Source of the DNA: Verrucomicrobium spinosum DSM 4136 = JCM 18804
GTDB taxonomy: Bacteria > Verrucomicrobiota > Verrucomicrobiia > Verrucomicrobiales > Verrucomicrobiaceae
Direction of reading: 5' to 3'
DNA length: 64,000 nt
Assembly: GCF_000172155.1 (NCBI RefSeq)
Contig: NZ_ABIZ01000001.1
Coordinates: forward strand, 992,001-1,056,000
The number at the start of each line of letters is the position of its first letter. The first letter of the stretch is position 1. Made by a program: the position numbers and the translations under genes. A model generated the notes under the pieces. The model saw only the letters and a program-made list of their open reading frames with translations. It searched no databases and was not told where the DNA came from. Positions 8,177 through 49,886 of this stretch are shown piece by piece.

Positions 8177-8209
8177 GATGCCCTCTCAATTCTGGCTACC
8201 TGATTCCCC

Positions 8210-8413: not shown

Positions 8414-8441
8414 AAGTGAGGCTCCCCAGTTAAGACCTTTC

Positions 8442-8480
8442 AAATCTCCGCCAGATCTGATCTTGGCGGGGATTTTTTTT
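8442..8480 (+). terminator. Rho-independent terminator after lipoprotein gene
   Basis: AAATCTCCGCCA (8442-8453) pairs with TGGCGGGGATTT (from 8464), with one G-U pair, and runs into eight T (8473-8480). It closes the 6.2-8.4 kb unit. Confidence 0.9.
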
Positions 8481-8501
8481 GCCTTACGAAGGCAATGGTT
8501 G

Positions 8502-8566
8502 GTAGTTCAAACTTTAGTTTGCTCAGTCCGCGGCAGGCTTCCTGAGCAAACTAAAGTTTGAACTAC
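8502..8566. repeat. Perfect 25-bp inverted repeat (REP-like element)
   Basis: The 25 bases at 8502-8526, starting GTAGTTCAAACTTTAG, recur as an exact reverse complement at 8542-8566, with a 15-bp GC-rich spacer between. There is no T-run in either direction. A second small palindrome, CCGACAGAGACTGTCGG, lies near 8628-8644. The stretch 8567-8809 otherwise shows nothing coding on either strand. Confidence 0.8.
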
Positions 8567-8800
8567 AAGCCGAACCTCGTCAGCGGGGATGGGGTGCTTG
8601 AACCTGCAATCCTGCGGCGACTGAGCCGACAGAGACTGTCGGACTACCCCTGTGGCGATCCGGTGACGTCGTCCGATGGTCCCCGTCGGGCTTGGGAGCG
8701 GAAGAGATTGCGAAAAACATCAAGGGCGTACTGGGATCTCAGCGCGCTTTCCCATATCAGGCCGGGCATCGGCGACCATCATCGGCGTCCATCTCTACCT

Positions 8801-8841
8801 CCGAAACAAAACACCCGGGGAACTCTCGTTCACCGGGTGTT
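8801..8841 (-). terminator. Terminator of the cysHDN operon
   Basis: On the minus strand AACACCCGG (8841-8833) pairs with CCGGGTGTT (8818-8810), followed by TTGTTTCGG. It lies about 48 bp after the cysN stop codon. Confidence 0.8.
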
Positions 8842-8888
8842 GAAGCAGATGCAGAAGCTGAAACAATCAGGTCGCTCCTCGAACTGGC

Positions 8889-10208
8889 CTAGATGGCAAA
8901 CTCGTCGGTGCTCTTGGTGGAGTCATCGCCTACTGCGCGGAGGATCATGCCCGCTGCCACCGTGTTGTTGGTCTGTTCATCCACGAGAATAAAGCTCCCC
9001 GTGGTGCGGTTCGTGGCGTAGGAATCAAAGAACAACGGGGAGGCGCAGCGCAGGCGAATGCAGCCGATGTCGTTCAAGCCAAACTCGGTCGGGCCGGGAA
9101 CGCGCTCCATGGTGCTGATGTTCACCTTGTAAAGCAGGTCCGGTACGGACGCCCGCACCGTGCGGGTGGTGTGGCGCAGATAGAACTTGCCCCGGGGTTT
9201 GAGCGGTTTTTCCGTGAACCAGCAGATCATCGCATCGATGTGCTGGCTGTGCTGGGGTGGCTCGTCCGCCTTGGCGATGAGGTCGCCACGGCTGATGTCG
9301 ATCTCGTGGGCCAGCGTGAGGGAATAGCTCAGCATGGGGATCGCCTCTTCCTTCGCCCCTTCCAGGGTGTGGATGCCGGTGATCTGCGTGCTCATGCCAG
9401 CGGGATAGGCAGTGATTTCATCGCCCACCTTGAAAGTGCCACTGGCCATGCGGCCGGCGAAGCCACGGAAGTCGTGATATTCATCCGACTGGGGGCGGAT
9501 GACCCACTGCACGGGGAACCGGGCGCTGCCTTCAGACTCGCCCACGTGCACCTGCACACTCTCCAGGTGCTCCAGCAGCGGCTTGCCGGTGAACCAGGGC
9601 ATGTTGGCGGACTTGTCCACCACGTTGTCCCCGTTGAGGGCGCTCATGGGGATGACCGTAACGTTGACCTTGTTTTCCAGGCCGGCGCGGAACTGCTCAA
9701 AGTCAGCCAGGATCTGGTTGTAACGCTCCTCGCTGAAGTCCACGAGGTCCATCTTGTTGATGGCCAGGACGATCTGTTCGATCCGCAAGAGGGATGCCAG
9801 GAAGGTGTGGCGGCGGGTTTGCTCCACCACGCCATGACGGGCGTCCACCAGGATGATGGCTAGGTCTGCCGTCGATGCACCAGTCACCATGTTGCGGGTG
9901 TACTGGATGTGGCCGGGGGTGTCTGCGATGATGAACTTGCGCTTGGGCGTCGCGAAGTAACGGTAGGCCACATCGATGGTGATGCCCTGCTCGCGCTCAG
10001 CGCGGAGGCCATCGGTCAGCAGAGCCAGATTCACGTGCTCATCGCCGCGTCGCTTGGACGATTCTTCGACCGCCAGAAGCTGGTCTTCGAAGATGGACTT
10101 GGAATCGTAGAGCAGGCGGCCGATCAACGTGCTTTTACCGTCATCCACGCTGCCGGCGGTGGTGAAGCGGAGGAGGCTGGATTCGGTGGGATTGACGAGA
10201 AGATCCAT
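8889..10208 (-). CDS. cysN: Sulfate adenylyltransferase subunit 1 (GTPase)
   Basis: A 439-residue translation-factor-like GTPase that couples GTP hydrolysis to formation of adenosine 5'-phosphosulfate by CysD. It shows the P-loop GSVDDGKSTLIGRL (about 19-32), the switch sequence DTPGH (about 94-98) and NKMD (about 149-152), then the beta-barrel domains of EF-Tu-like proteins. The length fits CysN without the C-terminal APS kinase (CysC) domain found in some fused forms, so APS kinase must be encoded elsewhere if PAPS is made. It is the last gene of cysH-cysD-cysN, 66 bp after cysD, and is followed by a terminator. Confidence 0.96.
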   Translation of the reverse strand: MDLLVNPTESSLLRFTTAGSVDDGKSTLIGRLLYDSKSIFEDQLLAVEESSKRRGDEHVNLALLTDGLRAEREQGITIDVAYRYFATPKRKFIIADTPGHIQYTRNMVTGASTADLAIILVDARHGVVEQTRRHTFLASLLRIEQIVLAINKMDLVDFSEERYNQILADFEQFRAGLENKVNVTVIPMSALNGDNVVDKSANMPWFTGKPLLEHLESVQVHVGESEGSARFPVQWVIRPQSDEYHDFRGFAGRMASGTFKVGDEITAYPAGMSTQITGIHTLEGAKEEAIPMLSYSLTLAHEIDISRGDLIAKADEPPQHSQHIDAMICWFTEKPLKPRGKFYLRHTTRTVRASVPDLLYKVNISTMERVPGPTEFGLNDIGCIRLRCASPLFFDSYATNRTTGSFILVDEQTNNTVAAGMILRAVGDDSTKSTDEFAI

Positions 10209-10274
10209 ACAAACTGTTTTTTCCTAGAAGCGGAGGGAAAGGAGGGGGCGGAACGGGGCCGGGTGAATCTCAAC

Positions 10275-11186
10275 TCAGAAGTAACCTTCCTTCTTGCGGT
10301 CCTCCATGGCTGTCTCAGAGCGGCGGTCGTCTGCGCGGGTCCCGCGCTCGGTCTGCCGGGCGGCAGCCACCTCGGCCACCACATCGTCAATGCTGCTGGC
10401 ATCGGAGAGAACGGCGCCTGTGCAGGTGGCATCGCCCACGGTACGGAAGCGCACTGTCATTTCCTGGATCCGGGGTTTTTCCTCATCCAGGAGCTGGACG
10501 AAGCCGGTCTCGGCATCCAGAAGCTGGCCATGGCGCTCGATGACCCGGCGCTGGTGGGAGAAGTAGAGATTCGGCAGGGGGATGTTTTCCTGGCGGATGT
10601 ACTGCCAGACGTCCATCTCTGTCCAGTTGCTCAGCGGGAACACGCGGAAGTGCTCGCCATAGTTCTTGCGGCCGTTGAAGATGTTCCAGAGCTCAGGGCG
10701 CTGGTTCTTGGGGTCCCACTGGCCAAACTCATCGCGATGGGAGAAGAAGCGCTCCTTGGCGCGGGCCTTCTCTTCATCACGGCGTCCGCCGCCCAGGCAG
10801 GCGTCATATTCATGCGCTTCGATCGTGTCGAGGAGCGTCACCGTCTGTAGCTTGTTGCGGCTGGCGTTGTGGCCCTTTTCCTCGACTGCGCGACCTTCAT
10901 CAATGCTTTTCTGCACGGAGCCCACCACGAGGGTGGCTTTGATCTCATTCACGAACCAGTCGCGGTATTCAATCGCCTCCGGGAAGTTGTGCCCGGTGTC
11001 GATATGAACTAGCGGGAAGGGGAGGTGCGCTGGATGGAAAGCTTTGCGGGCGAGCCAGGCCATGACGATCGAGTCTTTGCCGCCGGAGAACAGCATGGCG
11101 GGCTTGCCAAACTGGGCCGCCGTCTCGCGCAAGATGTAGATCGCCTCGCTTTCGAGGTACTGGAGGTGCGTGATGGAGGATGACAT
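10275..11186 (-). CDS. cysD: Sulfate adenylyltransferase subunit 2
   Basis: ATP-pyrophosphatase family enzyme adenylating sulfate to APS with CysN in the cytoplasm. The PP-loop SGGKDSIVMAWLA is near residues 34-46. The family signature HIDTGHNFPEAIEYRD follows at about 62-77, and the C-terminal half has the typical FPLSNWTEMDVWQYI segment. The start at 11186 (MSSSITHLQ) gives 303 residues, close to the 302 of E. coli CysD, and aligns with its N-terminus; an in-frame ATG at 11219 would add 11 unrelated residues. Neither has a clear ribosome binding site. It lies between cysH (65 bp upstream of this start) and cysN. Confidence 0.95.
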   Translation of the reverse strand: MSSSITHLQYLESEAIYILRETAAQFGKPAMLFSGGKDSIVMAWLARKAFHPAHLPFPLVHIDTGHNFPEAIEYRDWFVNEIKATLVVGSVQKSIDEGRAVEEKGHNASRNKLQTVTLLDTIEAHEYDACLGGGRRDEEKARAKERFFSHRDEFGQWDPKNQRPELWNIFNGRKNYGEHFRVFPLSNWTEMDVWQYIRQENIPLPNLYFSHQRRVIERHGQLLDAETGFVQLLDEEKPRIQEMTVRFRTVGDATCTGAVLSDASSIDDVVAEVAAARQTERGTRADDRRSETAMEDRKKEGYF

Positions 11187-11251
11187 GGAAGAAGTCTGAG
11201 ACTGGAGGCGGGATGACATGGGCGGGCGGGCTGGCAGGTCAAGGCGGGGCG

Positions 11252-11914
11252 TTAGCCCTTGGCGACATCAGTCACGAGCTTCGCGTGCAGGCCGCACTCG
11301 TGTTTTTCATCACCTTTGGCAGGATCGTAGTAGGTGCGCTCGTTGGGCAATTCGAACTCAGCGAGGTAGGCCTCCATTTCCACCGGGGTCCAGTCGAGGA
11401 TGGGGTTCACTTTCAACGTTTGGAACTTCTCATCCCACATCACGGGCTTGAGGGTGGCAGCGCGCTGCGGGTTTTGCTCCTTGCGCAGAGCGGTGATCCA
11501 CACGGTGGGAGCGAGTTCTCTCATGCCGCGCTCGAACGGTTCCAGCTTCATGATGCGGCTGAAGCTTTCCACGCGCTCCACCTCATCCGGCATGGGGATG
11601 CTCCCCCCATTGAGGGCCAGCCAGTGAGCGGCGGTCATGAGGGGCAGGTAAGGGCGGAGGTTCAAAGAGAGCTGGGCGCGGCTCTTTTCCGCGAAACGAT
11701 AAGTCTCGGGCAGATTGGTGCCGTGATCCACCCAGAGCACAGGGATATCTGCCTGAGCCTGGGTGGCGAGATGCAGGATGACCGCTTCGTACGGACGGAA
11801 GTTCGTCGTTACGATCGCTTTTCCCGCAGCTTGCTCGATGGCCCAGCGGGTGAGTTCCAAGGGGGAAAGGCCCTTTACAGTATCATTGAGAGCGGCAACC
11901 TGGTCGGGAGTCAT
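11252..11914 (-). CDS. cysH: Phosphoadenylyl-sulfate reductase (PAPS/APS reductase family)
   Basis: A 220-residue cytoplasmic enzyme reducing (phospho)adenylyl sulfate to sulfite with thioredoxin. The C-terminal catalytic motif ECGLH is present near residue 210. The paired Cys motifs that bind the 4Fe-4S cluster of APS-type reductases (CC...CxxC) are absent, so it resembles the PAPS-specific E. coli type (inference). It is the first gene of the minus-strand operon with cysD and cysN. A near-consensus promoter ends only 9 bp before the start codon. Confidence 0.93.
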   Translation of the reverse strand: MTPDQVAALNDTVKGLSPLELTRWAIEQAAGKAIVTTNFRPYEAVILHLATQAQADIPVLWVDHGTNLPETYRFAEKSRAQLSLNLRPYLPLMTAAHWLALNGGSIPMPDEVERVESFSRIMKLEPFERGMRELAPTVWITALRKEQNPQRAATLKPVMWDEKFQTLKVNPILDWTPVEMEAYLAEFELPNERTYYDPAKGDEKHECGLHAKLVTDVAKG

Positions 11915-35589: not shown

Positions 35590-35773
35590 GGCGGTTCGGT
35601 CGGATTGCGGAATACAGAAAAATCGGTGTTGAAACTCCCAGCATGCCCGGCTTGGCGGGAGATTCAAGCCCGGTTGCTTTGTGTTTGCGTTGTCCGGGAC
35701 TGGCCTGCGGTTGACGATTTTACGCTTCTGGAGGGACTTTCCAGTCGCCCAAGTCGCGTTAGACTGGTCGTGT

Positions 35774-36604
35774 ATGTGGAAAAAGACCGGTGAAACCCTC
35801 CTCGTCTCCGCCGCCCGAATCCTTGCTGTCATGGTGTTGTTCCTTGCCTGCTGCCAGAGCAAAATGATCTACATGCCCCGTGCCTATGATGCGGCCACGG
35901 TGCAACATGTGGATGCCCGACCTCTGGTTTATGAGACCGGGCAGGGGAAACAGACGGCATGGATCCATCCCAAGGCCGCCACCGGCAGTCAGGGCATCGT
36001 GTGGCTCGTCTTCGGCGGGAACGGCACCGTGGCCCTGGACTGGGTTGGCTTCTTTGACTCCCCGACGCTGAAGCAGGACACCTATGTGCTGGTGGACTAC
36101 CCCGGCTATGGCAGCAGCGATGGCAGCCCCACCCCCGGCCGGATCAAGGAGTCGGTGCAGAAGCTGGTGCCCGCCCTCGCGGTGGAGCTCAAGACCACCG
36201 AGGCCGAACTGCATCCCCGCCTGCGGGTGTTTGGCCACTCCCTCGGCTGCTCCGCCGCCCTCATGGCGATGGAGGAACATCACATCAAGAAAGGCGTGAT
36301 TCTCGCCCCCTACACCAGCATGAAAGACATGGCCCGCCACGTCCTCGGCTGGCCCTTGTGCGAGATCCTGCATCACCGCTTCGACAACGTCGCCACCTTG
36401 AAGCGCCTGCAAAAAGAAGGCGGCTACCAAGTGGTGGCCAGACACGGCACCGAGGATGAAGTGATCCCCGTGGCCATGGGGCGGAAGCTGGGTGAGTTAT
36501 TTCCTGATGTCGTGAAGTATGAGGATATTACAGGGGCGCGGCACAACGATGTGTTGAACACGGATACGGACAAGGTGCATGCGGCGCTGGAGGGGGTGAG
36601 GTGA
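35774..36604 (+). CDS. Alpha/beta hydrolase, predicted lipoprotein
   Basis: A 276-residue protein. The N-terminus has a signal-type hydrophobic stretch ([15 protein letters not shown]) with a possible lipobox LAC at about 25-27, so it may be lipid-anchored in the envelope. The alpha/beta hydrolase core shows [10 protein letters not shown], the nucleophile elbow [10 protein letters not shown] (Ser in the middle), and a late HGTEDEVIP segment with the acid; the catalytic His is probably in ARHND near the end. It resembles BEM46-like hydrolases; substrate unknown. Divergent from ilvD. Confidence 0.8.
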
Positions 36605-36670
36605 GGGGGGGATTGTGGAGTGTCATTTCTGAAAAGGTTATCAATTCGCTGGTCCCGTTGTTGGAGTTTG

Positions 36671-36806: not shown

Positions 36807-39800
36807 ATGCTACACCGCCAGCTTAAGGGCAGCGCATTGCCCTTCTACGTCCGTCTGTCATTTTCGAAGTGCCTGTTGAGGCCTTTCTGTCTGCTATGGA
36901 TCCTTATTTGTCTGTCTGCTTCTGCTGCATTGGGCGGTGGGAAAATTGCCAGCGGTCTCCGGCATCATCTCGCGGTCAAGTCAGACGGAACGGTGTGGGC
37001 GTGGGGACAAAACAGCAGCGGACAGCTGGGCAACGGTGCCACTGTGGACAGCAATGTGCCAGTGCAGGTTTCAGGGCTCACCAATGTGGTCTCGGTGGCG
37101 GCTGGATCGTCCTGGTCTTTGGCGCTGAAATCCGACGGTACAGTTTGGGGCTGGGGCACTAATCAAGGGTATTATGGTGGAGGGACGACGGCGGACACCT
37201 CCATTCCCCGACAGGTGACCGGGCTCTCTGACATCGTGAAAATCGCCGTGTCATGCAAGACTGGGACCATTGCCCGCTTTTTTGCTTACGCGGTGAAGTC
37301 GGATGGAACTCTGTGGGCGTGGGGGGACAATAGCTACGCGCAGTTTGGCAACGGAACGCTGTCCCCTCTAGGCAGCTACACGCCTCAAGAAGTGCCCGGC
37401 TTGACGGATGTGGTGGATGTGGATGCAGGAGAGTTTTTCGGTGTTGCTGCCAAAGGCGACGGCACCGCGTGGATCTGGGGCGGCACTTCGAATATCGTTG
37501 GCCTGTATAGTGTGATAGGCGTGACGTCCCCCAAGTCGCCGGTGCAATTGAGTGTTTCGGACATTGTCCAAGTGTCTGCCGGCAGGGGGCATGTGTTGGC
37601 GCTCAATTCGGCAGGGCAAGTGCGGGGTTGGGGTAGCGATGTTGATGGTGAACTAGGGAACGGTGGCCTTCCGCCTACGGGCTATCCGGTGCATTGTCCG
37701 TTTGGGACAGAGGCAATTACCTCCATCTCGACGGGTACGCGGCATTCGATGGCTGTCACGGCCTCTGGTCGTGTATGGGTTACAGGGTCCAACGCAAATC
37801 GACAGCTTGGAGTCGAAAACGCCGGGAAAGTGTTGACACCTGTGCTGTTGGCGCTGCCGACAGCAGTATCCGAAGTTTGCGGGGATGATAACGCAAGCAT
37901 CGCCGTGACCACTTCTGGAGCAATCTGGGGCTGGGGAGAGGGCTCCGCCGCGACTTGGAATTTTGAGACGCCGTTAGATCAGACGGAAAAACTGAAGGAG
38001 GTTGCTGGCACTGGAGTGATCAGACAAATTGCAGCTGGAACCTCCCATGGATTGTCGCTCCTCACAGGTGGGACGGTGAAGGGATGGGGTGCAAATGGTT
38101 CTTATCAAGTTGGAACTGGTGATATTGGGGTGCGGACCAGGCCCTCCACAGTTATTGAGATGGGTTACAATCAAGAGTTAACGAACGTTTCTAAAATTGC
38201 CGCCGGACGAAACTTTTCCCTAGCAATTCGTCAATCAGACGCGGCATTGCGGATGTGGGGGACAAATGCTTTGGGACTGGTGGGGCAGGACACTCAGTCT
38301 CCGACTGCGAAAGGCTATGCGCTTTCTGGCCTCTTTGGAGGCGGAGTGGTTCCGGTTGGTGTTGCGGCAGGCGCCACTCACGCGTTGGTGCTTTCTTCTG
38401 CGGGCAAGGTCTACTCATGGGGGGGATATTCAGCCGGGCAACTGGGGCGGACGATCGGAACCGGGATGGAGGGGGGACTTCGTTACGATGCTATCTATCC
38501 TGGAGAAGTGGCTGGTTTATCTAATGTGGTGGCGATTGCGGGATCCGCGCAATCTTCGTTCGCTCTCAAGAGCGATGGTACTGTCTGGGCCTGGGGTGGC
38601 AACAACCGAGGGCAGCTCGGAATTGGCACGACGACTGGAGCTTCATCCCCGCAACAGGTGGGGGCGGGCATCTTATTGAATGTTGTTTCCATTGCAGCGG
38701 GGCAGGATCATGCGCTGGCGCTTACTTCTGACGGTGAAGTTTGGGCTTGGGGGCTCAACTCCTCGGGGCAGATCGGCAATGGAGTCTTGACGGATGTCTT
38801 GACCCCTGTGTGTTTGTCATTGACGAACATTGCGGCAATCGGATGCGGGCAACTGCACAGTCTGGCCGTCGGTGCCGATGGCTCGGTGTGGAGTTGGGGG
38901 AGCAATTCCACGGGGCAATTGGGGCGGACAACTGGGAGTACGTCGAGTCCGGGTATCGTGCCGAAAACTCAAGGTGTGGTCCAAGTTGCTGGGGGAGGCT
39001 CGTTTTCGATGGCGCTGAAAGAAGATGGCTCGGTCATCACGTGGGGGCCTGAAACGGCTTCTTCACAACGCCAGGTGTTTGGTGTGGGGTACAGTGCGTT
39101 TGTTTCACCGGGAGTGCTGCCCGGCTTCAATCTGTCCTCCTCAGTGCCGGAGGTGAGCTTCGCGAGTGGTGCTCCCACCGTCACCGTCTCGCTTGGACAA
39201 CAGGCAGTGTTACCCATCGCCTACCAGTCTTCGAGCTTGGCAGCCATGGACTCCGTCAGCCTCTACTATGGCAATGACGTTGTCGGAGTGGCTGGACCCG
39301 GGGCTGGCAGTGTTCCGTTCTCGCCTCGTACTTGGGGAGACTTTCCTGTCACCTTGATCGCAAAGGATGTGCATGGTGCGCATTCTCTCCGTGCTACACC
39401 GATCACGATCCACGTTCCATACGACAGCGATAGCAACAGCCTTCCTGACTGGTGGGAGTTGAAGCACTTCGCGAAACTTGGCGTGACGCCCGGAGGCGAT
39501 CCTGACCGCGACGGGGTGACCAATTTGCAGGAGTACAAGGCGGGGACCGATCCGTTGGATGCAGTGAATTTGGCAAACGTTTCGGGATCTTCGCCGGGAG
39601 TCACCTGGTCAGGCAATGTCTCCGGCGGCAATGCAGGGACAGGAGGAGTGGTCCCTGGTGCCCCCACTGCGCTTCCCAATGGCACCGCAGTGGATGAATC
39701 CTTCATCGATGTGAGCGAACCCCAGCAGGGAAGTGCCTTGGGAGAGGGGATGAAGATCGAGGCAAAATGGGTGTCTGTGGACTATTGGGATGAGACATTC

Positions 39801-42800
39801 GATTGGGATCCACCAGGAATGGACTCCGACAGTCTGTATTGGAACCTCTATCGGTCTGGAGAATTCCCATCCTTGGGATTGACCACCGAACCTGCATTGA
39901 CGCTGGGAACTAACTGGGATGTGGGATTTGGCATTTGGGGAATCAATCCTGATGCTGAGTCTCATCGGAGGCGTCCGTTCAATGAGCCGATGTTTGATGA
40001 AGGTGCCTGGCTGGCCGGGGTCCATAAGGTGCATGACAGCTGGTGGAGCGAGTGGATGCAGGTGCGGGCGACTCTGTGGGATCCTGCGGAGCGGTGGTAC
40101 TACTATTATTACAACAAGATCAAGGTGGTGAAGGAGGACAATGTGGAAGTCTCCCGCACCGTGATGGGGCCTGAAAGATTGGTGATCCGACCTGGCGAAA
40201 CTTCCTCGGGTGTTGTCAACTTGATGCCGCAACCTGGAGATCTCCTGGCACCCGGCGAATCGGAGCAAATCTTCCTTGAACGCGTCGAAACGACTGGCGA
40301 AGCGCAACCCAGCTTTCGCATCTCCGCCTCTGACGCGGCCGGGCCGGTGCATCGCAAGATCGGCCTCCATGGCATGCCTCTTTCCGACAGCAAGCCGCAG
40401 GTGAAGGACGAGAGCGGGGAGGTCCCGGAAGAAACCTTTGTGGATGCCTTTACCCGGCAGCTCAACCACTCCGTCAGCGACGTCTATTCCAGTGTGGACA
40501 GCTCCCTGCTGCCGCTCACGGTCCGCCGCGGAACCCGTGAACATGTGTGGAGCCTGCGCAGCGGGCTGCGCCCCTCGGAGCTGCCCGATGCCCCTTTTGG
40601 ACCGGGTTGGTCCTCGAACCTGTGCGCCCACATCAAGTTTGAGTGGGGGTATCAAAAGGCCGTAGTCACAGATGAACAAGGGGCTGCTTCAGTCTATTTT
40701 CGCGTGCTTCGGGATGAAGAAGGGGTGTTGCATCCCAATGACGTCCACGTGTGGATGCACACCCGGGAGGAAAAGCAGGACGCCAAGACCGCCTACAACA
40801 CCTTCGAAACGATTTGGGACGAAAACCAGCAGGTCACAGGCTTTGTGTACCGCAAGAAGTATGGTGCCACCTGCACCTACGAGCTGGTTCCGATTTTCCA
40901 GTTCTTCTCCAACAACCGTCTGGATGGCGCTCATACCTTCACGGATTACACCTACGCACGCCTGACCAAAGTGGAAGACCGCTGGGGCAACAAGCTTCTC
41001 TACAGCTACCCCACGGACACCACACTTATTCCCAACAAGATTGAAGATCCTGACCGCCCCAACCAGGTGGTCACCATCACCCAGAACAACGGGGTGGTCA
41101 CGGCCGTGCGTGGTCCTTCAGGGGAAACCGTCGAGTACAACTACGCCACCCAGAACACGGGTGATGACCTGGTGCGGTATCTGTCCTCGGTGGAACGTGG
41201 GGGACAAACGGTCAGCTACCAGTATGAAACGGAGATTGAGCCTGTTCCGGCCATCGACCTCGATGCGGACGGGCCGCCTGACCCCCAGAACCGGCACTTC
41301 TCCCTGACCCGCATCACGGACGAGCGGGGTGGGGATTACGAGTTCGAGTACGAGTTCAATTACGGCAACAAGTACCTGGAAGTCTCTGGAGACGGGTTCA
41401 TGACCCGCAGCCAGCTGGGCATGCCCCGGCTGGTGAAGAAGGTGACCCTGCCGAATAATGCGGTGACCACCTTTGGGGGAACCCGGCAGCTCGTCTGTCA
41501 GAGTGATGCCACCCTGAACGCGGTGTCCATGGAGACCCAGGTCAGCGGCCCGTGTGGGACCTACACTTACACGTTCACCCAGCCGGACGTCTTTGTGCCG
41601 CTGGCTCAAGATCCTGACCGCAATCCCGATCCCTTCAGCCGCCAGCTCACCGTCTTCTTCAGTCGGATGAAGATCGACACCCCTGAGGGGGATGAGGTTT
41701 ACAACTTCGACTTCGACCACGGCATGGCGCTCAGCTCAGCCACGGATATAAGCGGGAACACCACTACCTTCCACTATGGCACGGTGGGCTCCAACGGCCT
41801 CGGGTGGGATGATCCCATCCAGCAGGTCAATGCCCTGGGCAAGAGCCGGTACTTCACTTATGACGATGACACCCGGGTCATGAAGTCCATGACCGATGAG
41901 CGGGGTACGCTGACCAGTTACACCATTCAATCCGGCACCGGACTGCGGACCAAGGAAACCATCAGCAAGGGCGGCAGCACCTTGCGGGTCACTGACTTTG
42001 ACTATGGTGCCGGCGGCTTTGCCGGGTTCCTGGCCAGGACCACCGTGCAGAGCACCACGGCCACCGGGGGCGATCTGGTCACCGAGTACACTCCCGATGC
42101 CAATGGCCGGGTCCAGAAGGAAGCGGTCACGGCCGGAGGTGGCATCGAGCTGGTCACCAGCTACACCTACACGGGCAACGGCAGCAAGAAGACCGTCACC
42201 AACCCACGCGGGCACACCACCACCTTCACCTATGATGCCCAGAGCCTGCGGCTCACGGGTGTGGAGAACCCCGACAGCACCACGCGCACCCTGGGCTATG
42301 ACGCCCATGGCAACCTCACCAGTGAGGTGAACGAGCGCGGCGTCACGACCACGCACGAGTACGACGCCTTGAACCGGCGCAAGAAGACCATCGTGGACAT
42401 GGATGACGGGGCCGACCTGGTGAGCGAAACCACCTACACGGCGCTGAACCTGCCGCACACCGAAACCGACCCACGCGGCACGGTCACCACCCACACCTAT
42501 GACGGCATCGGCCGACGTCTCACCACCACGGTGGGCAGCGGCGGGGACGCCCAGACCACGACCTGCACCTACGGGGCCAACAGCGGGGGCAGCGTCTTTG
42601 ATGTGAGCGGGTTCAAGCCCACCACGCTCACCGACCCCCGTGGCAAGGTGACCACCATCACCTATGACGACCTCTACCGGCCCACGGTCAAGCAGCTGCC
42701 GGAGGGTAACACCGTCACCACCACTTATGACGACGCCGGCAACCCCGAGGAGGTCAAGGACGCGCTCAACCGCATCACCAAGACCACCTTTGACGGCCTG

Positions 42801-45800
42801 AACCGTCCCACCCAGGTGGAGTATCCCGATGCCACCACCCGGCATTCCTACTACACGCCCTCCGGTCTGGTCTGGAAGGTGGTGGACGAACTGGGTCGTG
42901 AAACCCTCACCCAGTACGACCGGGCGGGTCGCGCTGTGGAGGTGACGCTTCCTGCGGTCAACGGGGTCAGCCCGGTGACCAAGACCGCCTATGACGCCAA
43001 TGGCGATGTCATTGCCGTGCAGGATCCCCTGGGGAACATCGTCACCACGGTCTACGACAACCGCAACCGTCCCACCAAGGTGACCTCCCCGTACATCTGG
43101 GATGCCCTGGAGGGTCAGTGGTCCCGGCCGGAGGTGAACACCACCTATGACGCTGGGGGCAACGTGCTCACGGTCACCGACCCTCTGGGCAAGGTTACCA
43201 CCAAGACCTACAACAACGCGGGCTGGGGGCTCACCGTAACCAATGCCCTGGGCCAGGTGACCGCTTCCACCTATGACCGCAACGGCAACGTCAAGACGGT
43301 GACCGATGCGCTCAACCGGGTGGTGACCAACACCTATGACATCCACAACCGTCTCATCGAGACGGAAGATGCGGAGGAGCAGATCACCACCTTTGGTTAC
43401 GACAAGAACGGCAACCGGACCTCGGTGACAGATCCGCGGGGCAAGGTGACCACGTTCACCTATGACGACCTCAACCGGCTCCTCAAAGAAACGTTCCAGG
43501 AGGGCGTGTGGACCGAGCGTCATTACGATGCTCTTCGTGAAACCTCCCGGGAGGACAGCGCGGGCCGTGAGTTCACCTTTGGGTATGACCTGCGCGACCG
43601 CCTCACCACCACGACCTGGACGGTGGGTGGCAGCCCGGTGGTGCGCACCCGGGTCTATGACACTGCGGGCCGTCTCACCGATGTGACCGAGACGGGGCGT
43701 CCCGAGGCCACGGTGGGCTACACCTATGATGCCCTCAATCGGGTGGCCACCGAAACCACCCAGGGCCTCACGCACACTTACACCTATGACCTGGGCGGCC
43801 GCCGGACCGGAAGCGCTCTGGGCACGGGCAAGACCATTGCCACCACCTACGACAGCCAGGGCAAACCGCTCACGGTCACCGAGGGCGGGCGCACCACGGT
43901 CTATCACTATGACCTGGCCAGCCGGGCGGTGGCCCAGACACAGCCCAACGGGTTGTGGCAGTATAATGCGTACGACGACCTAAGCCGGTTGGAATCGCGC
44001 CAGACCTACACCAGCGCCGATGCCCTGCAGGCCCAGTTCCTGTGGACCTATGATGCGGTGGGCAATGTCACCGTGCAGTCAGAGCGCTGGCCCGGAGAAG
44101 GCACGCGTGGGGCAGGCTGGCGCAGCACCGTCATGGTGTATGACGCCACCAACCGGCTCACAGGTGAGGCCATGGCCCAGCCTGGCTCCCCGGTGATCAC
44201 CACCGGTTATGCCTATGACACGGGCAGCAACCGCAGCGTGAAGCTGGTGAGCAGGGACGGCAGCCTGACCACCAAGACGCTCTACACCTACAACCACTTC
44301 AACCAGCTCGCGGACTGGTCGGAGGAGGATGGGCTGGGGGCGGTGACACGCACCGCCGCCTTGACCTATGACCTGGCCGGCAACCGGGCCACCCAGACGC
44401 TCACCACCGCCGAGCAGTCCGTGCAGACCACCACCTACCACTGGGATGCAGAGAACCGGCTGGAAGGCGTGACCCTGCCGAATGCTGAGGAGCACGAGTA
44501 TGGCTATGACTACCGGACCCGGCGCATCAGCCGGGTGGAAAACGGCATCGGTACGGCCATCGTGTTCAGCGGCGGCCTGAGCGTGGCCGAGTACGAGTCC
44601 CAGGGCATCACGCCCACGGTGGAATACCTGCGTGGCCCCGACATGGGCGGTGGCGTGGGCGGGATGATGTACAGCCTGCGCAACGGCGGGACCGAGGCGA
44701 AGTATGCGATGAGCAACGGCCGAGGAGACGTCGTGGCCCAGAGCAACGATGCCGGAGCCCTGACCTGGACAGCCAGCTACGAAGCCTACGGCAAACGTCC
44801 AGTGGAAACCGGGACCAACCTGGACCGTCAGCGGGCCAACACCAAAGAGGAAGATCCGACCGGGCTGCTCAACGAAGGGTTTCGCTACCGTGACATCGAG
44901 ACCGGTGTCTGGCTGAGCCGCGACCCGGCGGGGTTCGTGGATGGCCCCAACCTGTATGCGTATGTCCGCCAGAATCCGTGGACCGCATTCGATCCTCTGG
45001 GCTTGGAAGGGACCATTGTCTTCGGAGTGTTTTTCAGCACGGAGTATGGGTTGGAGATTGCACCTGCGAAGGACTTCCACAGGGCGCGGGCCACAAGAGT
45101 GTTTCCGGACGTTAACAAGGCAAAGGAGCGGTTTAGTGACCTAACGGAATCTCCAGGCCAATTTGGAGCAGGATTCCTCGGGGGCTATCATGGTAGTGGT
45201 CTCGGAGGCGACTCTAGGGCTGCTCAGAACGGGAGGGCTGTTGGAGAAAACGTTGCAATAGCAGAAGCTGTGATAGCAGCATTCTCGCGCACTGGCGTGC
45301 CCAAAGGACCCGGTCCGAGGCTTGCACCGGCGCACGGTCCAGCGATAGCCGACCTTCCAGTGGCAGTACCTGCCACGCGTCCGCCTGCCATTGTGCTAAT
45401 GAACCAGAATTCCGGGCATGAGTCTCCAACTGAGACGGGTAAGGGGAATGCAGGAAAGAGTGAGGAAATTGCTACAGATGCAGCAGGCACAGGTGGTCAC
45501 TTTGTCGGTGAGGCTACCCCATGGGCAGTTGGAGCTACTCCTAATTCGATCTACACTCAGATTTCAGGGAAATCTGGAGCTGCAATCAAAAACGTAATCT
45601 ATGATGGTTCCGGACGATACGTCGGTGAGGTGAACTTCCGCAACCATGGCGGAGGGATGGTGTCGGGCCACGGCCATAAGGCAGACTCTCCTGGGGACAT
45701 CGGTAGTGCTCATTTGCCTCAGAACCACTTGCTACCATCGCAAGTGCCGTCATCATGGTCCACTTTGCCACCTAATATTCCACCTACGACCCCGCTCGGA

Positions 45801-45806
45801 AAATGA
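36807..45806 (+). CDS. Giant RCC1 + RHS repeat protein with variable C-terminal toxin-like domain
   Basis: A 2999-residue exported protein. After a long signal peptide (about 1-50) come roughly 13-14 RCC1-type propeller repeats (about 50-780; recurring SDGTVWAWG and GQLGNG), then an immunoglobulin-like stretch and a calcium-binding, thrombospondin-3-like segment (about 872-918, DSDSNSLPDWWE and DPDRDGVTNLQEY). From about 1400 to 2690 are RHS/YD repeats (many GN-x-TYDxxNR units), ending with the RHS core signature (RYRDIETGVWLSRDP, then DPLGLEG near 2735). The last ~264 residues are unrelated to the core and less GC-rich. They end in a His/Gly-rich segment (GRYVGEVNFRNHGGG, SGHGHK) that looks like a nuclease-type toxin tip (inference). 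The shell-plus-swappable-tip design is that of RHS polymorphic toxins; no PAAR or T6SS element is present. Confidence 0.9.
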   Translation: MLHRQLKGSALPFYVRLSFSKCLLRPFCLLWILICLSASAALGGGKIASGLRHHLAVKSDGTVWAWGQNSSGQLGNGATVDSNVPVQVSGLTNVVSVAAGSSWSLALKSDGTVWGWGTNQGYYGGGTTADTSIPRQVTGLSDIVKIAVSCKTGTIARFFAYAVKSDGTLWAWGDNSYAQFGNGTLSPLGSYTPQEVPGLTDVVDVDAGEFFGVAAKGDGTAWIWGGTSNIVGLYSVIGVTSPKSPVQLSVSDIVQVSAGRGHVLALNSAGQVRGWGSDVDGELGNGGLPPTGYPVHCPFGTEAITSISTGTRHSMAVTASGRVWVTGSNANRQLGVENAGKVLTPVLLALPTAVSEVCGDDNASIAVTTSGAIWGWGEGSAATWNFETPLDQTEKLKEVAGTGVIRQIAAGTSHGLSLLTGGTVKGWGANGSYQVGTGDIGVRTRPSTVIEMGYNQELTNVSKIAAGRNFSLAIRQSDAALRMWGTNALGLVGQDTQSPTAKGYALSGLFGGGVVPVGVAAGATHALVLSSAGKVYSWGGYSAGQLGRTIGTGMEGGLRYDAIYPGEVAGLSNVVAIAGSAQSSFALKSDGTVWAWGGNNRGQLGIGTTTGASSPQQVGAGILLNVVSIAAGQDHALALTSDGEVWAWGLNSSGQIGNGVLTDVLTPVCLSLTNIAAIGCGQLHSLAVGADGSVWSWGSNSTGQLGRTTGSTSSPGIVPKTQGVVQVAGGGSFSMALKEDGSVITWGPETASSQRQVFGVGYSAFVSPGVLPGFNLSSSVPEVSFASGAPTVTVSLGQQAVLPIAYQSSSLAAMDSVSLYYGNDVVGVAGPGAGSVPFSPRTWGDFPVTLIAKDVHGAHSLRATPITIHVPYDSDSNSLPDWWELKHFAKLGVTPGGDPDRDGVTNLQEYKAGTDPLDAVNLANVSGSSPGVTWSGNVSGGNAGTGGVVPGAPTALPNGTAVDESFIDVSEPQQGSALGEGMKIEAKWVSVDYWDETFDWDPPGMDSDSLYWNLYRSGEFPSLGLTTEPALTLGTNWDVGFGIWGINPDAESHRRRPFNEPMFDEGAWLAGVHKVHDSWWSEWMQVRATLWDPAERWYYYYYNKIKVVKEDNVEVSRTVMGPERLVIRPGETSSGVVNLMPQPGDLLAPGESEQIFLERVETTGEAQPSFRISASDAAGPVHRKIGLHGMPLSDSKPQVKDESGEVPEETFVDAFTRQLNHSVSDVYSSVDSSLLPLTVRRGTREHVWSLRSGLRPSELPDAPFGPGWSSNLCAHIKFEWGYQKAVVTDEQGAASVYFRVLRDEEGVLHPNDVHVWMHTREEKQDAKTAYNTFETIWDENQQVTGFVYRKKYGATCTYELVPIFQFFSNNRLDGAHTFTDYTYARLTKVEDRWGNKLLYSYPTDTTLIPNKIEDPDRPNQVVTITQNNGVVTAVRGPSGETVEYNYATQNTGDDLVRYLSSVERGGQTVSYQYETEIEPVPAIDLDADGPPDPQNRHFSLTRITDERGGDYEFEYEFNYGNKYLEVSGDGFMTRSQLGMPRLVKKVTLPNNAVTTFGGTRQLVCQSDATLNAVSMETQVSGPCGTYTYTFTQPDVFVPLAQDPDRNPDPFSRQLTVFFSRMKIDTPEGDEVYNFDFDHGMALSSATDISGNTTTFHYGTVGSNGLGWDDPIQQVNALGKSRYFTYDDDTRVMKSMTDERGTLTSYTIQSGTGLRTKETISKGGSTLRVTDFDYGAGGFAGFLARTTVQSTTATGGDLVTEYTPDANGRVQKEAVTAGGGIELVTSYTYTGNGSKKTVTNPRGHTTTFTYDAQSLRLTGVENPDSTTRTLGYDAHGNLTSEVNERGVTTTHEYDALNRRKKTIVDMDDGADLVSETTYTALNLPHTETDPRGTVTTHTYDGIGRRLTTTVGSGGDAQTTTCTYGANSGGSVFDVSGFKPTTLTDPRGKVTTITYDDLYRPTVKQLPEGNTVTTTYDDAGNPEEVKDALNRITKTTFDGLNRPTQVEYPDATTRHSYYTPSGLVWKVVDELGRETLTQYDRAGRAVEVTLPAVNGVSPVTKTAYDANGDVIAVQDPLGNIVTTVYDNRNRPTKVTSPYIWDALEGQWSRPEVNTTYDAGGNVLTVTDPLGKVTTKTYNNAGWGLTVTNALGQVTASTYDRNGNVKTVTDALNRVVTNTYDIHNRLIETEDAEEQITTFGYDKNGNRTSVTDPRGKVTTFTYDDLNRLLKETFQEGVWTERHYDALRETSREDSAGREFTFGYDLRDRLTTTTWTVGGSPVVRTRVYDTAGRLTDVTETGRPEATVGYTYDALNRVATETTQGLTHTYTYDLGGRRTGSALGTGKTIATTYDSQGKPLTVTEGGRTTVYHYDLASRAVAQTQPNGLWQYNAYDDLSRLESRQTYTSADALQAQFLWTYDAVGNVTVQSERWPGEGTRGAGWRSTVMVYDATNRLTGEAMAQPGSPVITTGYAYDTGSNRSVKLVSRDGSLTTKTLYTYNHFNQLADWSEEDGLGAVTRTAALTYDLAGNRATQTLTTAEQSVQTTTYHWDAENRLEGVTLPNAEEHEYGYDYRTRRISRVENGIGTAIVFSGGLSVAEYESQGITPTVEYLRGPDMGGGVGGMMYSLRNGGTEAKYAMSNGRGDVVAQSNDAGALTWTASYEAYGKRPVETGTNLDRQRANTKEEDPTGLLNEGFRYRDIETGVWLSRDPAGFVDGPNLYAYVRQNPWTAFDPLGLEGTIVFGVFFSTEYGLEIAPAKDFHRARATRVFPDVNKAKERFSDLTESPGQFGAGFLGGYHGSGLGGDSRAAQNGRAVGENVAIAEAVIAAFSRTGVPKGPGPRLAPAHGPAIADLPVAVPATRPPAIVLMNQNSGHESPTETGKGNAGKSEEIATDAAGTGGHFVGEATPWAVGATPNSIYTQISGKSGAAIKNVIYDGSGRYVGEVNFRNHGGGMVSGHGHKADSPGDIGSAHLPQNHLLPSQVPSSWSTLPPNIPPTTPLGK

Positions 45807-46195
45807 GTCTTACTGAACTATCAACGGCACGTTCTTTGCTTAGCAGTTACTGCGAACTCTGCGACGCAGTGATAGAGAATGTGGAGTTGCGATTTGGTTT
45901 AGACCCGGAGTTGAATATGTTGCTTGTGGTGAGGACGAACGAGGGCGTTCCTTGTCGTGTCACGTTGCGGCTTTCTAGTGTTGAAGCTTTCCGGTTCGAG
46001 TTCTTGGAGCATCAGTCGGGCAAGGTGATTTCTGAGGGGGTTCGTGTTGATTGCGACGGCGACAGTTTGTTTGTGGATTTTGGCGACGATCCCGACCTGC
46101 GGCCGGGAGAAGCGGGGTGGCAAGTTTATTCGAAAAAGTGGTGCGTTTGTGCTGCTTTGGACATTGTTGACGTGCAACCTTATTCGCCGAGTTGA
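45803..46195 (+). CDS. Candidate cognate immunity protein of the RHS toxin
   Basis: A 130-residue acidic cytoplasmic protein without a signal peptide. Its ATG overlaps the RHS stop codon (ATGA), giving tight translational coupling. It has no family I recognise; notable are several Cys (17, 20, 118, 120), and the run VDCDGDSLFVDFGDDPDLR near 82-100. Position directly behind the variable toxin tip, small size, acidity and lower GC than the RHS core fit an immunity protein. That role is inference from context. Confidence 0.7.
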   Translation: MSLTELSTARSLLSSYCELCDAVIENVELRFGLDPELNMLLVVRTNEGVPCRVTLRLSSVEAFRFEFLEHQSGKVISEGVRVDCDGDSLFVDFGDDPDLRPGEAGWQVYSKKWCVCAALDIVDVQPYSPS

Positions 46196-46370: not shown

Positions 46371-46757
46371 TTAAGTCGCATCCTTTTTGCGAATCTGGCG
46401 CTGGGCCCGGTGTGGCTCCTCCCTCATTTCGTGCCGGGGTTTGGTCATCAGCTGGGTAAGCGAGTAACCAAGCCCCGTGGGTGCAGGGCTTGACTTTTGC
46501 TGGTCGGCACGCCGTGCCATCCACGCCCGGGGCGTGATTTCCTTCATCTGTTGATTGGTCATCGCTGGCAGCTTCGTGAACAGGTCCTTGAGATACTCGT
46601 AGGCATCCGCCCCAGCCCGCTTCGCATTGTCCAACAGCGTGTAAAACGTCGCCGCACGCACTCCCGCCTGCGCGTCGCCCACGAACAACCAGTTCTTCTT
46701 GCCGATGGCACTGGGCCGGATCGTGTTCTCCACCAGGTTGTTGTGTATGCCTCGGAA
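46371..46757 (-). pseudogene. IS66-family transposase (TnpC), C-terminal remnant
   Basis: About 125 residues remain. The segment HNNLVENTIRPSAIGKKNW followed by LFVGDAQAG is the characteristic end of the IS66 DDE transposase catalytic domain, including the Glu of the DDE triad in VENTIRP. A C-terminal tail about 70 residues long follows. The N-terminal three quarters are missing: homology stops at about 46757, where the group II intron sequence begins on the opposite strand. No other IS66 part is visible in the window, so this is a dead remnant. Confidence 0.85.
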
Positions 46758-48600
46758 AGGCGTTGAGAATCACCGGGTGGAAGTCCCGGCTGGCTATATC
46801 GCTCCGGCCAGAAGCACTGGGGGCGGTTCAAGAGGTGACAAATGAATCGAAGTACTTCCAGAAAAGGCTCCGTAGGGAGTCAGCGATCATGCGGGCTGCA
46901 ATGTAGTGTGAACACCGTGCAGGCCTCGAAAGACTGTTGTGGGAGCCGACCCGCCATAATAACGGGGAAGGCCGTCGTCTGGGGCCGCTCTGAGCGGTTG
47001 AAGGTCCTGGATTCCACCGGGGTAGTGGTGGCAGTACGCATGGAAGGGGCTCAACGCAACGAGGGAAGTCTGCTGGGATGGACAGCCGGGGTGGCATCCG
47101 GAGCCCAACCATCGGCCCGCGAGGGAGACGGTGGGTCCTGGCAGATGACGGATGGGGGTGTAGTACCTGGGAAGCCTGGTAATGCGGGTGGAGGGAAGGC
47201 TCCCTGATGACTGGCAAGTGAACCAAGCAGCGAGAACCATGAGGATTGATGGCAACAGATTGATGGCAACATCTACGAACTTCAACCGGGCAAGACCGGG
47301 ACGGTTGGGAAGCTGCAAAGTGCACTGCTGACAAAAGCCAAGGCCGAGCCCGGCTGCCGGTTTTACAGTCTGTGGGACAAGGTCTGGCGCGAGGATGTGC
47401 TGGCTGAAGCCTGGGACCGCTGCCGCCGCAAAGCGGGGGCACCCGGAGTGGATGGCACCAGCTTCCAACAGATCGAACAACAGGATGTGAGCGTGTGGCT
47501 GAGGGAGCTGCGGGAGGAGTTGCGAAGCGGTGCTTACCGCCCGCAACGCCTCCGCCGGGTGTGGATACCCAAAGCAGGAGGAGGACAGAGACCGCTGGGC
47601 ATTCCCACGGTGAAGGACAGAGTGGTGCAAATGGCGATGGTGCTGGTGCTGGCCCCAATCTTTGAGGCCGACCTCTGCGAAGAGCAGATGGGGTATCGTC
47701 CGGGACGCGACGCTAAAACTGCGGTACGCCTTGTCTATTATCAGGTGAGGCAGAAAGGACGCAGTGAAGTGGTGGACGCGGACCTGAGCGATTACTTCAA
47801 CACCATCCCCCATGGAGCGCTGCTCAAGTGCCTGAGCCGGAGGATAGCTGATGGCAAAGTGCTCCGGATCATCCGGATGTGGCTCAAAGTCCCCGTCAAA
47901 GAACCAAGCAGAGGCAGCCGAACTGTCCAAGCGACTGAAAGCCGCAACCACCGACGCGGGGTGCCGCAGGGAGGGGTGATCTCGCCCCTGCTTGCCAACC
48001 TTTACTTTCGGAGGTTCCTGCTGGCCTGGAAGAAGTTTGGGCACGACCGTGCCACGCAATCGGTGATCGTGAACTACGCTGATGACTTCGTGATCTGTTG
48101 CAAACCCGGAAACGGGCCGACGGCCCTCGAGGCCATGGAAGGGATCATGGAGAAACTTGGGTTGAAGGTAAACGAGCGCAAGACGCGGCTGGTGCAGGTG
48201 CCGGGAGGGATGTTTGACTTCCTGGGTTACAGCTTCGGACGGTTTTACGGACGAGACGGAAAGTCATATGAAGGGACCCGGCCTTCCAAGAAGGCTGTGC
48301 AAAAACTGATGAAGGCAATCCATGACGAGACCACCTCACTGTGGCACGCCTCGGAACCCGAGGTGAGGACATTGGTGATCAACCGGAAACTGAGAGGCTG
48401 GGCGGGTTACTTCAACCAAGGCCCGGTCTTCAAGGAGTATCGCAAGATCCAAGCCTATACAGAGAGGCGGTTGCGCAGGTGGCTGATGCGGCGCAGGCAG
48501 AAGAAAGGCACGGGCTACCGCCAGTATCCCGACAAGCACCTCTACGAGGAGCTTGGCCTGTACAAACTGCAATGCGAGCGCCCAGGCACGCAGTACGAAG
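46745..48600 (+). mobile_element. Group II intron, 3'-truncated, inserted in IS66 transposase
   Basis: The intron lies antisense to the IS66 remnant. Its 5' ribozyme part (about 46745-47238, domains I to IV) contains no gene and is rich in structured sequence (for example GGGTGGAAGTCCCGGCTGG). The maturase gene follows. No domain V (a short GAGCC...GGTTC hairpin) or domain VI is seen after the maturase or on the far side of the Y1 transposase element, and no 3' exon of IS66 is found. The intron therefore seems to have lost its 3' end. Boundaries are approximate. Confidence 0.75.
47244..47271 (+). repeat. 14-bp tandem duplication frameshifting the maturase gene
   Basis: GATTGATGGCAACA occurs twice end to end (47244-47257, 47258-47271), right after an ATG at 47239. 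Removing one copy joins ATG AGG ATT GAT GGC AAC to the downstream maturase frame. Confidence 0.85.
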
Positions 48601-48797
48601 AGACAGGCTATTACGAGAAAGAGAAGTTGACGGCTCTACCTTTTAGGGCGATGGGCTGCCATGGCTTCGCCTCGATATATTGCCGATCCGCTGGCTCCGG
48701 TTGCCTTTTACCACTGCATTTCTCGGGTGGTGGAGAGGCGGCTGGCGTTTGGGCCGGAGGAGAAGGAGCAGTTTGTGCGCTTGATGCGGGCCTATGA
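47397..48797 (+). CDS. Group II intron reverse transcriptase/maturase, damaged at both ends
   Basis: The frame from GTG 47397 encodes a reverse transcriptase with GAPGVDG, IPKAGGGQRPLGIPT, the catalytic YADD near residue 224, FDFLGYSFGRF, and a maturase X domain (KLRGWAGYF near 345). No HNH endonuclease domain is seen. The N-terminus is damaged: homology continues upstream in the same frame (VGKLQSALLTKAKAEPGC), and the natural start is probably ATG 47239, separated by a 14-bp tandem duplication that breaks the frame. The C-terminus is damaged too: after LYEELGLYKL the sequence stops matching the family and runs on into the flank of the Y1 transposase element until 48797. Probably non-functional. 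Confidence 0.85.
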   Translation: MLAEAWDRCRRKAGAPGVDGTSFQQIEQQDVSVWLRELREELRSGAYRPQRLRRVWIPKAGGGQRPLGIPTVKDRVVQMAMVLVLAPIFEADLCEEQMGYRPGRDAKTAVRLVYYQVRQKGRSEVVDADLSDYFNTIPHGALLKCLSRRIADGKVLRIIRMWLKVPVKEPSRGSRTVQATESRNHRRGVPQGGVISPLLANLYFRRFLLAWKKFGHDRATQSVIVNYADDFVICCKPGNGPTALEAMEGIMEKLGLKVNERKTRLVQVPGGMFDFLGYSFGRFYGRDGKSYEGTRPSKKAVQKLMKAIHDETTSLWHASEPEVRTLVINRKLRGWAGYFNQGPVFKEYRKIQAYTERRLRRWLMRRRQKKGTGYRQYPDKHLYEELGLYKLQCERPGTQYEETGYYEKEKLTALPFRAMGCHGFASIYCRSAGSGCLLPLHFSGGGEAAGVWAGGEGAVCALDAGL

Positions 48798-49886
48798 GGG
48801 GTTCTGCCAGGTGCGGGTGTTGTCCTATTGTGTGATGTCCAATCACTTCCACATCATGGTGGAGGTGAAGAAGCGGCCTGAAGGGGCGGTGTATTCGGAT
48901 GCATGGCTGCTCAAGCAGGCGGCGTTGATCTATTCCCAACCGGCGGTGCGGATGCTCAAGGAGACGCTGGAAACCTTTCGCAGCCAGGGGCATGACGCGG
49001 CGGCCGAGGAACTCAAGGAGAGATATTTGGGGCGGATGTGGGATGTGAGCCAGTTCATGAAGGAACTCAAACAGCGCTTTTGTCTCTCGCGTTTCGCTCG
49101 CGACCTGCAGTTTGGCTTCGCTCTAAGTTGCCGCTTCGCGGCATGGCAGTGTCTGTGGTTCAACAAGCGGGAGAACCGCAAGGGCACGCTTTGGGAGGAG
49201 CGGTTCACCAGTGTGCTGCTGGAAGGTGAGCTCGCTACGCTCTCGGTGATGAGTGCCTACATCGATCTCAATCCGGTGCGGACGGGACTGGTGCAGGATC
49301 CCAAGGACTACCGGTGGTGCAGCTATGCGGAGGCGGTGGCGGGTGGACGCAAGGCGTTGTCAGCCTTGTACACGATCACGAATGAGCAACGGGCGCATGA
49401 GCGGAACCAGCTAGGGGGCTCGCATCGGATTCCCGGTGCGGCCAAGGTCCTTTCCGGCTACCGGGTATGGCTCTTTGGCCAGGGGGAGGAGGTTCGAGAC
49501 GGTCACGGTCCGGACAGCCAGGTGCTGCGCAAGGGGATCAAGCGCGAGCTGGTGGAGCAGGTACGCACGGAAGACGGCAAGCTGACCCTCGCGGAGACGC
49601 TGCGTCATCGGGTGACGTACTTCACGCTAGGTGTGGCCTTGGGAAGCCGGGGTTTTGTGGATGAGTTCTTTGAGGCGCGGCGAGAACAGTTTGATGCCCG
49701 CCGCCAACGAGGTGCCCGCCCCATGAAGGGCGGGAGTTTTGCGGGGATGTTTGCCTTTCGAGCGCCGAGAGTCGGGGTGGTGTGACGGCAATAAGGGGTG
49801 CCGCAAAGAAGGGTGGCTGGTGCATACGGGAATAGGGGACCAAGGGGTATTGAGCCCTTGGGGTGGCAAGATAGACAGGCTATTAC
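48601..49886 (+). mobile_element. RAYT-type Y1 transposase element bounded by 14-bp direct repeats
   Basis: AGACAGGCTATTAC occurs exactly at 48601-48614 and 49873-49886, bracketing the Y1 transposase gene. The left copy lies within the disrupted end of the intron maturase frame, so the element probably inserted there. Whether the repeats are element ends or target-derived cannot be told from one copy. Confidence 0.6.
48661..49785 (+). CDS. REP-associated tyrosine transposase-like protein (Y1/TnpA_REP family)
   Basis: A 374-residue HUH-type single-strand transposase relative of IS200/IS605 TnpA. The start MASPRYIADPLAPVAFYHCISRV has the typical first strand of the family. The metal-binding HUH motif is SNHFHIMVEV (about 60-69). 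The catalytic Tyr is probably in the SAYIDLNPVRTGLV helix (about 198-211), followed by the diagnostic YRWCSYAEA. It is longer than IS200 TnpA and has a C-terminal extension of ~100 residues, as in RAYT proteins that mobilise or maintain REP sequences. Codon use resembles the host. Appears intact. Confidence 0.88.
   Translation: MASPRYIADPLAPVAFYHCISRVVERRLAFGPEEKEQFVRLMRAYEGFCQVRVLSYCVMSNHFHIMVEVKKRPEGAVYSDAWLLKQAALIYSQPAVRMLKETLETFRSQGHDAAAEELKERYLGRMWDVSQFMKELKQRFCLSRFARDLQFGFALSCRFAAWQCLWFNKRENRKGTLWEERFTSVLLEGELATLSVMSAYIDLNPVRTGLVQDPKDYRWCSYAEAVAGGRKALSALYTITNEQRAHERNQLGGSHRIPGAAKVLSGYRVWLFGQGEEVRDGHGPDSQVLRKGIKRELVEQVRTEDGKLTLAETLRHRVTYFTLGVALGSRGFVDEFFEARREQFDARRQRGARPMKGGSFAGMFAFRAPRVGVV

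What the first reader, a model, noticed from the sequence alone, without database searches (positions are those of the whole stretch)
36807..46195. RCC1-propeller/RHS polymorphic toxin with unrecognised C-terminal tip and overlapping candidate immunity gene
Seen: signal peptide, 13-14 RCC1 repeats, calcium-type segment, RHS repeats, RHS core ending DPLGLEG, then ~264 unrelated residues; a 130-residue acidic gene starts inside the stop codon. Known: RHS toxins release a variable C-terminal effector and are paired with immunity proteins. Inference: this is a Sec-exported contact or surface toxin with an RCC1 front end and a new effector (His/Gly-rich end with NHGGG and GHGHK). The RCC1 + RHS fusion with no PAAR/T6SS part suggests a different delivery mode.
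Basis: partly seen in the sequence, partly recalled or inferred. Interest (0 to 1): 0.75.

Follow-up and report, generated by a model that had tools for sequence, protein, structure and literature searches.

The report
Swappable toxin tip with immunity gene
A giant secreted bacterial protein ends in a small exchangeable toxin that is followed by its own antidote gene; the same toxin-antidote pair recurs on unrelated carrier proteins in distant bacteria, so this is a real but previously unnamed member of a known class of bacterial weapons.

Summary
ORF 36807-45806 (2999 aa) has 14 RCC1-repeat matches, an RHS shell, an RHS core ending DPLGL, and then a tip. A 130-aa gene starts inside its stop codon (ATGA). 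The reading as toxin plus immunity is well supported by comparison. (1) A paralogue in the same genome (L079), also RCC1-fronted, matches the shell at about 94-100% per block over residues 1630-2729, then carries an unrelated PT-HINT tip. (2) The last ~108 residues form a compact domain found on four other RHS carriers, in two other Verrucomicrobiota genomes and in Rahnella and Caballeronia. All five complete loci have a related small gene immediately downstream. (3) A relative keeps the immunity gene beside the last ~20 codons of a lost toxin. Corrections: the first ~150 'tip' residues are a linker, part of it shared with an RHS protein bearing another toxin. The effector is not wholly unrecognised: its relatives match Pfam Ntox24 below the gathering cutoff. 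RCC1 is one of several front ends in this genus. In Rahnella the tip rides a T6SS-type RHS, while this genome lacks VipB, so the cassette does not depend on one delivery route. Most likely action: cytoplasmic RNA cleavage (inferred). New variant of a known kind.

The parts
36807..45806 (+). RCC1-RHS polymorphic toxin gene, 2999 aa
36807..36932 (+). signal-peptide-like N terminus (residues ~1-42)
   Evidence: sequence only: hydrophobic stretch ending CLSASA-ALGG; the paralogue L079 has a similar one
36984..39180 (+). RCC1 repeats, 14 matches (residues ~60-790), probably two seven-bladed propellers
   Evidence: RCC1_2 E 2e-87, 14 stretches; WD40_RLD E 4e-143; the two-propeller reading is inference
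39498..39563 (+). TSP3-like Asp-rich segment (residues 898-919)
   Evidence: E 0.23, sub-threshold
40578..45005 (+). RHS/YD shell (residues ~1258-2733); ~94-100% identical per 50-residue block to paralogue L079 from residue 1630 to 2729
44778..45005 (+). RHS-associated core ending in DPAGF...DPLGL, the presumed self-cleavage region
   Evidence: TIGR03696, 54 bits; motif read from the sequence
45090..45464 (+). linker (residues ~2762-2886), shared with a G014 RHS protein that ends in another toxin
45480..45803 (+). effector domain (residues ~2892-2999); GATPNSIYT, NFRNHG, SGHGH, WSTLPP motifs
   Evidence: sub-threshold Ntox24 in relatives
45803..46195 (+). immunity gene, 130 aa, overlapping the toxin stop by ATGA

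Best explanation
This is a polymorphic toxin locus. The 2999-aa protein is exported by Sec (inferred from its N terminus). RCC1 propellers at the front serve as an adhesion or docking module (inferred). The RHS shell encloses the C-terminal part and cuts itself after the DPLGL motif (inferred from the RHS core family). What is released is a linker plus a ~108-aa effector that acts inside a target bacterial cell. The effector belongs to a small cross-phylum family whose closest named relative is Ntox24, and it most likely cleaves RNA (inferred from the published Ntox24 prediction and from conserved Tyr and His residues; about 50% likely on its own). The 130-aa product of the overlapping gene binds the effector and protects the producer. 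Shown here by comparison: the carrier/tip break, the recurrence of the effector on unrelated carriers, and the constant pairing with one family of small genes. Inferred: secretion, cleavage, target, enzymatic activity and binding. The confidence below is for the toxin-immunity reading.
For: Paralogue L079 has ~94-100% identity per block over residues 1630-2729 and then an unrelated tip; that tip holds PT-HINT (E 1.1e-19), and a third RCC1-RHS protein in the genome holds PT-TG, both published pre-toxin domains. The effector is on four other carriers: L067/L048 (50% identity), L068 (82% to L067, on a different RHS backbone), Rahnella (75% to L068) and Caballeronia (55% to L068). The small gene is related across loci: window vs G262, 27% identity, E 8e-8. 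A profile from the verrucomicrobial immunity proteins alone finds the small genes behind the Rahnella and Caballeronia tips at E 4.5e-5 and 0.006, the only other hits above inclusion in the 116 fetched loci; hhalign gives E 8.4e-6. Gene spacing is -4, -1, -4, +8 and +9 nt. G014 keeps an immunity gene directly after the last ~20 codons of a lost tip; G038 has an orphan immunity gene. GC falls from 62.5% in the RHS shell to 53.5% in the effector and 51.0% in the immunity gene.
Against: No toxicity or binding was measured. The structure models are weak (effector mean pLDDT 70 with 3 sequences; immunity 52) and no solved fold matched clearly, so the nuclease reading rests on sub-threshold Ntox24 matches. 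A direct profile comparison with one true Ntox24 sequence from this phylum (L069) gave no support. The window's own tip does not match Ntox24 at all.
Confidence: 0.9

Rival explanations
1. Same effector-immunity pair, but the effector is not an RNase: the five invariant histidines (H56, H64, H66, H78, H83 of the alignment) bind a metal and the domain is a new hydrolase or DNase.
For: Five invariant His in all five family members; no solved structure is similar by sequence or fold.
Against: The only recurring Pfam match is Ntox24, predicted in PMC3482391 to be a metal-independent RNase with conserved Y, H, H.
Confidence: 0.3
2. The RHS protein is a surface or adhesion protein and its C terminus is an inert variable tail; the small gene is unrelated to it.
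For: RCC1 and RHS repeats also occur in surface proteins; no toxicity data exist.
Against: The same tail sits on unrelated RHS carriers and is followed by a related small gene in 5 of 5 complete loci; paralogues carry PT-HINT and PT-TG pre-toxin domains.
Confidence: 0.05
3. The pair works as an intracellular toxin-antitoxin or addiction module, not as an exported weapon.
For: Ntox24 domains are also reported in toxin-antitoxin systems (PMC3482391).
Against: Here and in all four relatives the effector is the C terminus of an RHS-core protein; the carrier has a signal-peptide-like N terminus.
Confidence: 0.04

Closest known systems
RHS polymorphic toxin systems (Rhs_assc_core, TIGR03696; PMC3482391)
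   Same: YD shell, conserved core ending DPxGL, variable tip, adjacent small immunity gene, tip exchange between near-identical carriers
   Different: 14 RCC1 repeats at the N terminus; no PAAR, DUF4150 or VgrG part
Ntox24 (PF15529)
   Same: Best Pfam match for four of the five family members over ~42-64 of 91 model positions; small, strand-rich domain with conserved Tyr and His; carried by RHS proteins
   Different: All matches are under the gathering score and the window's own tip does not match; longer His-rich C-terminal half; small gene has no match to Imm50 or Imm53
Tc toxin TcB-TcC and teneurins (recalled, not tested beyond Pfam)
   Same: Beta-propeller plus YD shell plus C-terminal toxin-like domain
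   Different: The propeller is RCC1; no SpvB or TcdB_toxin_mid domain was found
T6SS RHS effectors (Rahnella locus L098)
   Same: A related effector and a related small downstream gene
   Different: That carrier lies beside DUF2169, DUF4150 and PAAR genes; this genome has no VipB

Membership tests
RHS polymorphic toxin | RHS-associated core above the curated cutoff | tested here: met
   TIGR03696, 54 bits vs 32.5
RHS polymorphic toxin | variable C-terminal tip after a conserved carrier | tested here: met
   ~94-100% identical shell with an unrelated tip in L079; PT-HINT in that tip
RHS polymorphic toxin | linked cognate immunity gene, conserved with the tip | tested here: met
   related small gene behind 5 of 5 complete tips; binding not tested
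RHS polymorphic toxin | toxicity of the tip, neutralised by the small protein | not testable with these tools
   needs expression in a laboratory strain
Ntox24 (PF15529) | score over the Pfam gathering cutoff of 24 bits | tested here: not met
   relatives 16.4-20.5 bits; window tip no match
Ntox24 (PF15529) | conserved Y, H, H (PMC3482391) | tested here: inconclusive
   Tyr and several His are invariant in the family, but their equivalence to the Ntox24 residues could not be shown
Imm50 / Imm53 (the immunity families listed for Ntox24) | Pfam match of the small protein | tested here: not met
   no match for the window protein or its relatives
T6SS RHS effector | PAAR, DUF4150 or VgrG part, and a T6SS in the genome | tested here: not met
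   no such domain; VipB/TssC absent, control positive in E. coli
Tc toxin BC component | SpvB and TcdB_toxin_mid domains | tested here: not met
   no match in Pfam
RCC1 repeat protein | several RCC1 repeats over cutoff | tested here: met
   RCC1 E 8e-78, RCC1_2 14 stretches

The most novel reading that the evidence does not exclude
The effector and its immunity protein are a new, cross-phylum toxin-immunity family pair (not Ntox24/Imm50) with a His-rich active site, carried by Sec-exported RCC1-RHS scaffolds that deliver it without a T6SS, by a contact mechanism in which RCC1 propellers take the part that other propellers have in Tc toxins.
Probability: 0.2. Interest if true: 0.7.

Novelty: new variant of a known kind. 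Interest (0 to 1): 0.42.

Why it matters
It defines a small effector-immunity pair that Pfam, NCBIfam and PHROGs do not recognise over cutoff, shared by Verrucomicrobiota and Proteobacteria. It also gives a clean natural swap (two carriers ~94-100% identical along the last ~1100 shell residues, with unrelated tips) and an RCC1-RHS scaffold in a genome without VipB, so how such proteins reach a target cell becomes a testable question.

Tried and rejected
Exact-pattern scans of genome contigs with the full tip, and of viral contigs with the tip alignment, found no relative. Weak single hits in relatives, such as L005, L050, L052, L062 and L084, lie in unrelated ORFs and were dropped. Fold searches of both models gave only noise: effector best Z 3.6; immunity Foldseek E above 1. 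Sequence searches of solved structures gave no credible match. No match in phages or E. coli. PHROGs empty. Profile comparison of the family with one true Ntox24 sequence, and with the second small cassette behind L068, gave no support. No paper in the held library was found that joins RCC1 repeats with RHS or YD repeats in a bacterial toxin (of the two papers, PMC3482391 mentions RCC1 only as part of a virus strain name and PMC4140846 was not read). No paper names 'polymorphic toxin type 24'. A genome search outside the phylum, centred on a plasmid record, was not possible.

Full report
What is there. Pfam finds 14 RCC1_2 and 14 RHS_repeat stretches. NCBIfam finds the RHS-associated core at residues 2658-2733. 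The window lies in one 8,220,857-base contig; that size is, from memory only, that of Verrucomicrobium spinosum.

The carrier is shared and the tip is not. The genome has 24 RHS-core matches. The gene at L079 also starts with a signal-like segment and RCC1 repeats. Against the window protein it is ~94-100% identical per 50-residue block from residue 1630 to 2729, and unrelated afterwards. Its tip holds the pre-toxin domain PT-HINT (E 1.1e-19). A third RCC1-RHS protein (L077) has PT-TG. Two further RCC1-RHS carriers, cut by contig ends, are in a second species of the genus, while the same shell in G003 has a different front end (L114). RCC1 is therefore one of several front modules in this genus.

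The tip has two parts. Residues ~2762-2886 match an RHS protein of G014 (34%, E 1.5e-11), which then ends in a different sequence followed by a different small ORF. Residues ~2892-2999 recur on other carriers: G262 (50% identity, E 1e-28; the same locus as L067), a Puniceicoccaceae MAG (L068, on a different RHS backbone), Rahnella victoriana and Caballeronia zhejiangensis. The Rahnella carrier lies beside DUF2169, DUF4150 and PAAR genes, the genes of T6SS-linked RHS effectors.

The small gene travels with the effector. The G262 gene is 27% identical to the window's (E 8e-8), and L068 has the third. A profile of five verrucomicrobial proteins, which did not include the proteobacterial ones, found the genes directly behind the Rahnella and Caballeronia tips (E 4.5e-5 and 0.006) and nothing else above inclusion among the fetched loci. 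hhalign between the two sets gave E 8.4e-6, probability 83%. Spacing in the five loci is -4, -1, -4, +8 and +9 nt. In G014 the last ~20 codons of a lost tip stand directly before an immunity homologue; in G038 the homologue is alone. This is the pattern expected of toxin-immunity cassettes and their leftovers. The base composition agrees: GC is 62.5% in the RHS shell, 53.5% in the effector and 51.0% in the immunity gene.

What the effector is. Four of the five family members give Pfam Ntox24 as best match (16.4-20.5 bits; cutoff 24). The window's own tip gives none. Ntox24 is described as all-beta with conserved Y, H, H, found with RHS repeats, paired with Imm50 or Imm53, and conceivably a metal-independent RNase (PMC3482391). 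The family here has an invariant Tyr and five invariant His, and the model shows three strands in a row at its best-predicted part. The immunity proteins do not match Imm50 or Imm53. I therefore say that it works like an Ntox24-type effector, and do not file it as a member.

Delivery. The protein has no PAAR or similar part, and VipB/TssC is absent from the genome with a positive control, so T6SS delivery is unlikely. Sec export is inferred from the N terminus. How the tip enters a target cell is unknown; a docking role of the RCC1 propellers is a guess by analogy with the propellers of Tc toxins (own knowledge).

A side observation. A Y1 (IS200-like/RAYT) transposase gene at 48661-49785 has about 13 close copies in the genome. 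Seven lie within 6 kb downstream, same strand, of an RHS core, against 0.1 expected for random placement. Three of five near copies checked in two sister species show the same order. This recalls, from memory, the H-repeat beside E. coli Rhs elements. It could reflect shared duplication and was not followed to a mechanism.

Noticed in passing
48661-49785 (+), and L117, L119, L120, L122, L125, L126, L129, L130, L131: A Y1/RAYT transposase gene sits 1-6 kb downstream, same strand, of RHS cores in 7 of ~13 copies in this genome (0.1 expected by random placement) and in 3 of 5 copies checked in two sister species.
   Followed up: partly
46371-46733 (-) and 47397-~48590 (+): IS66 C-terminal remnant followed by a group II intron reverse transcriptase just downstream of the immunity gene. 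The stretch 46635-47806 is 97% identical to DNA near the RHS locus L078.
   Followed up: partly
L068:3709-4799: A second possible cassette behind the first one in the Puniceicoccaceae MAG: a 220-aa ORF with a hydrophobic N terminus and a VDFDHSHGPLGPGHVHP stretch near its end, followed by an overlapping 143-aa ORF; no family match for the first.
   Followed up: partly
35681-36604: The alpha/beta hydrolase gene upstream of the toxin; DNA in this gene (about 36049-36249 and 36343-36610) is 82-90% identical to DNA near the start of the paralogue L079.
   Followed up: no
L123:3338-5500 and 8172-11500: Two copies of an ORF starting MNFYVMEYLNNSPCGKF near RAYT copies that lie far from any RHS core; it resembles immunity genes of the DUF1629/Imm11 kind by eye only.
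   Followed up: no
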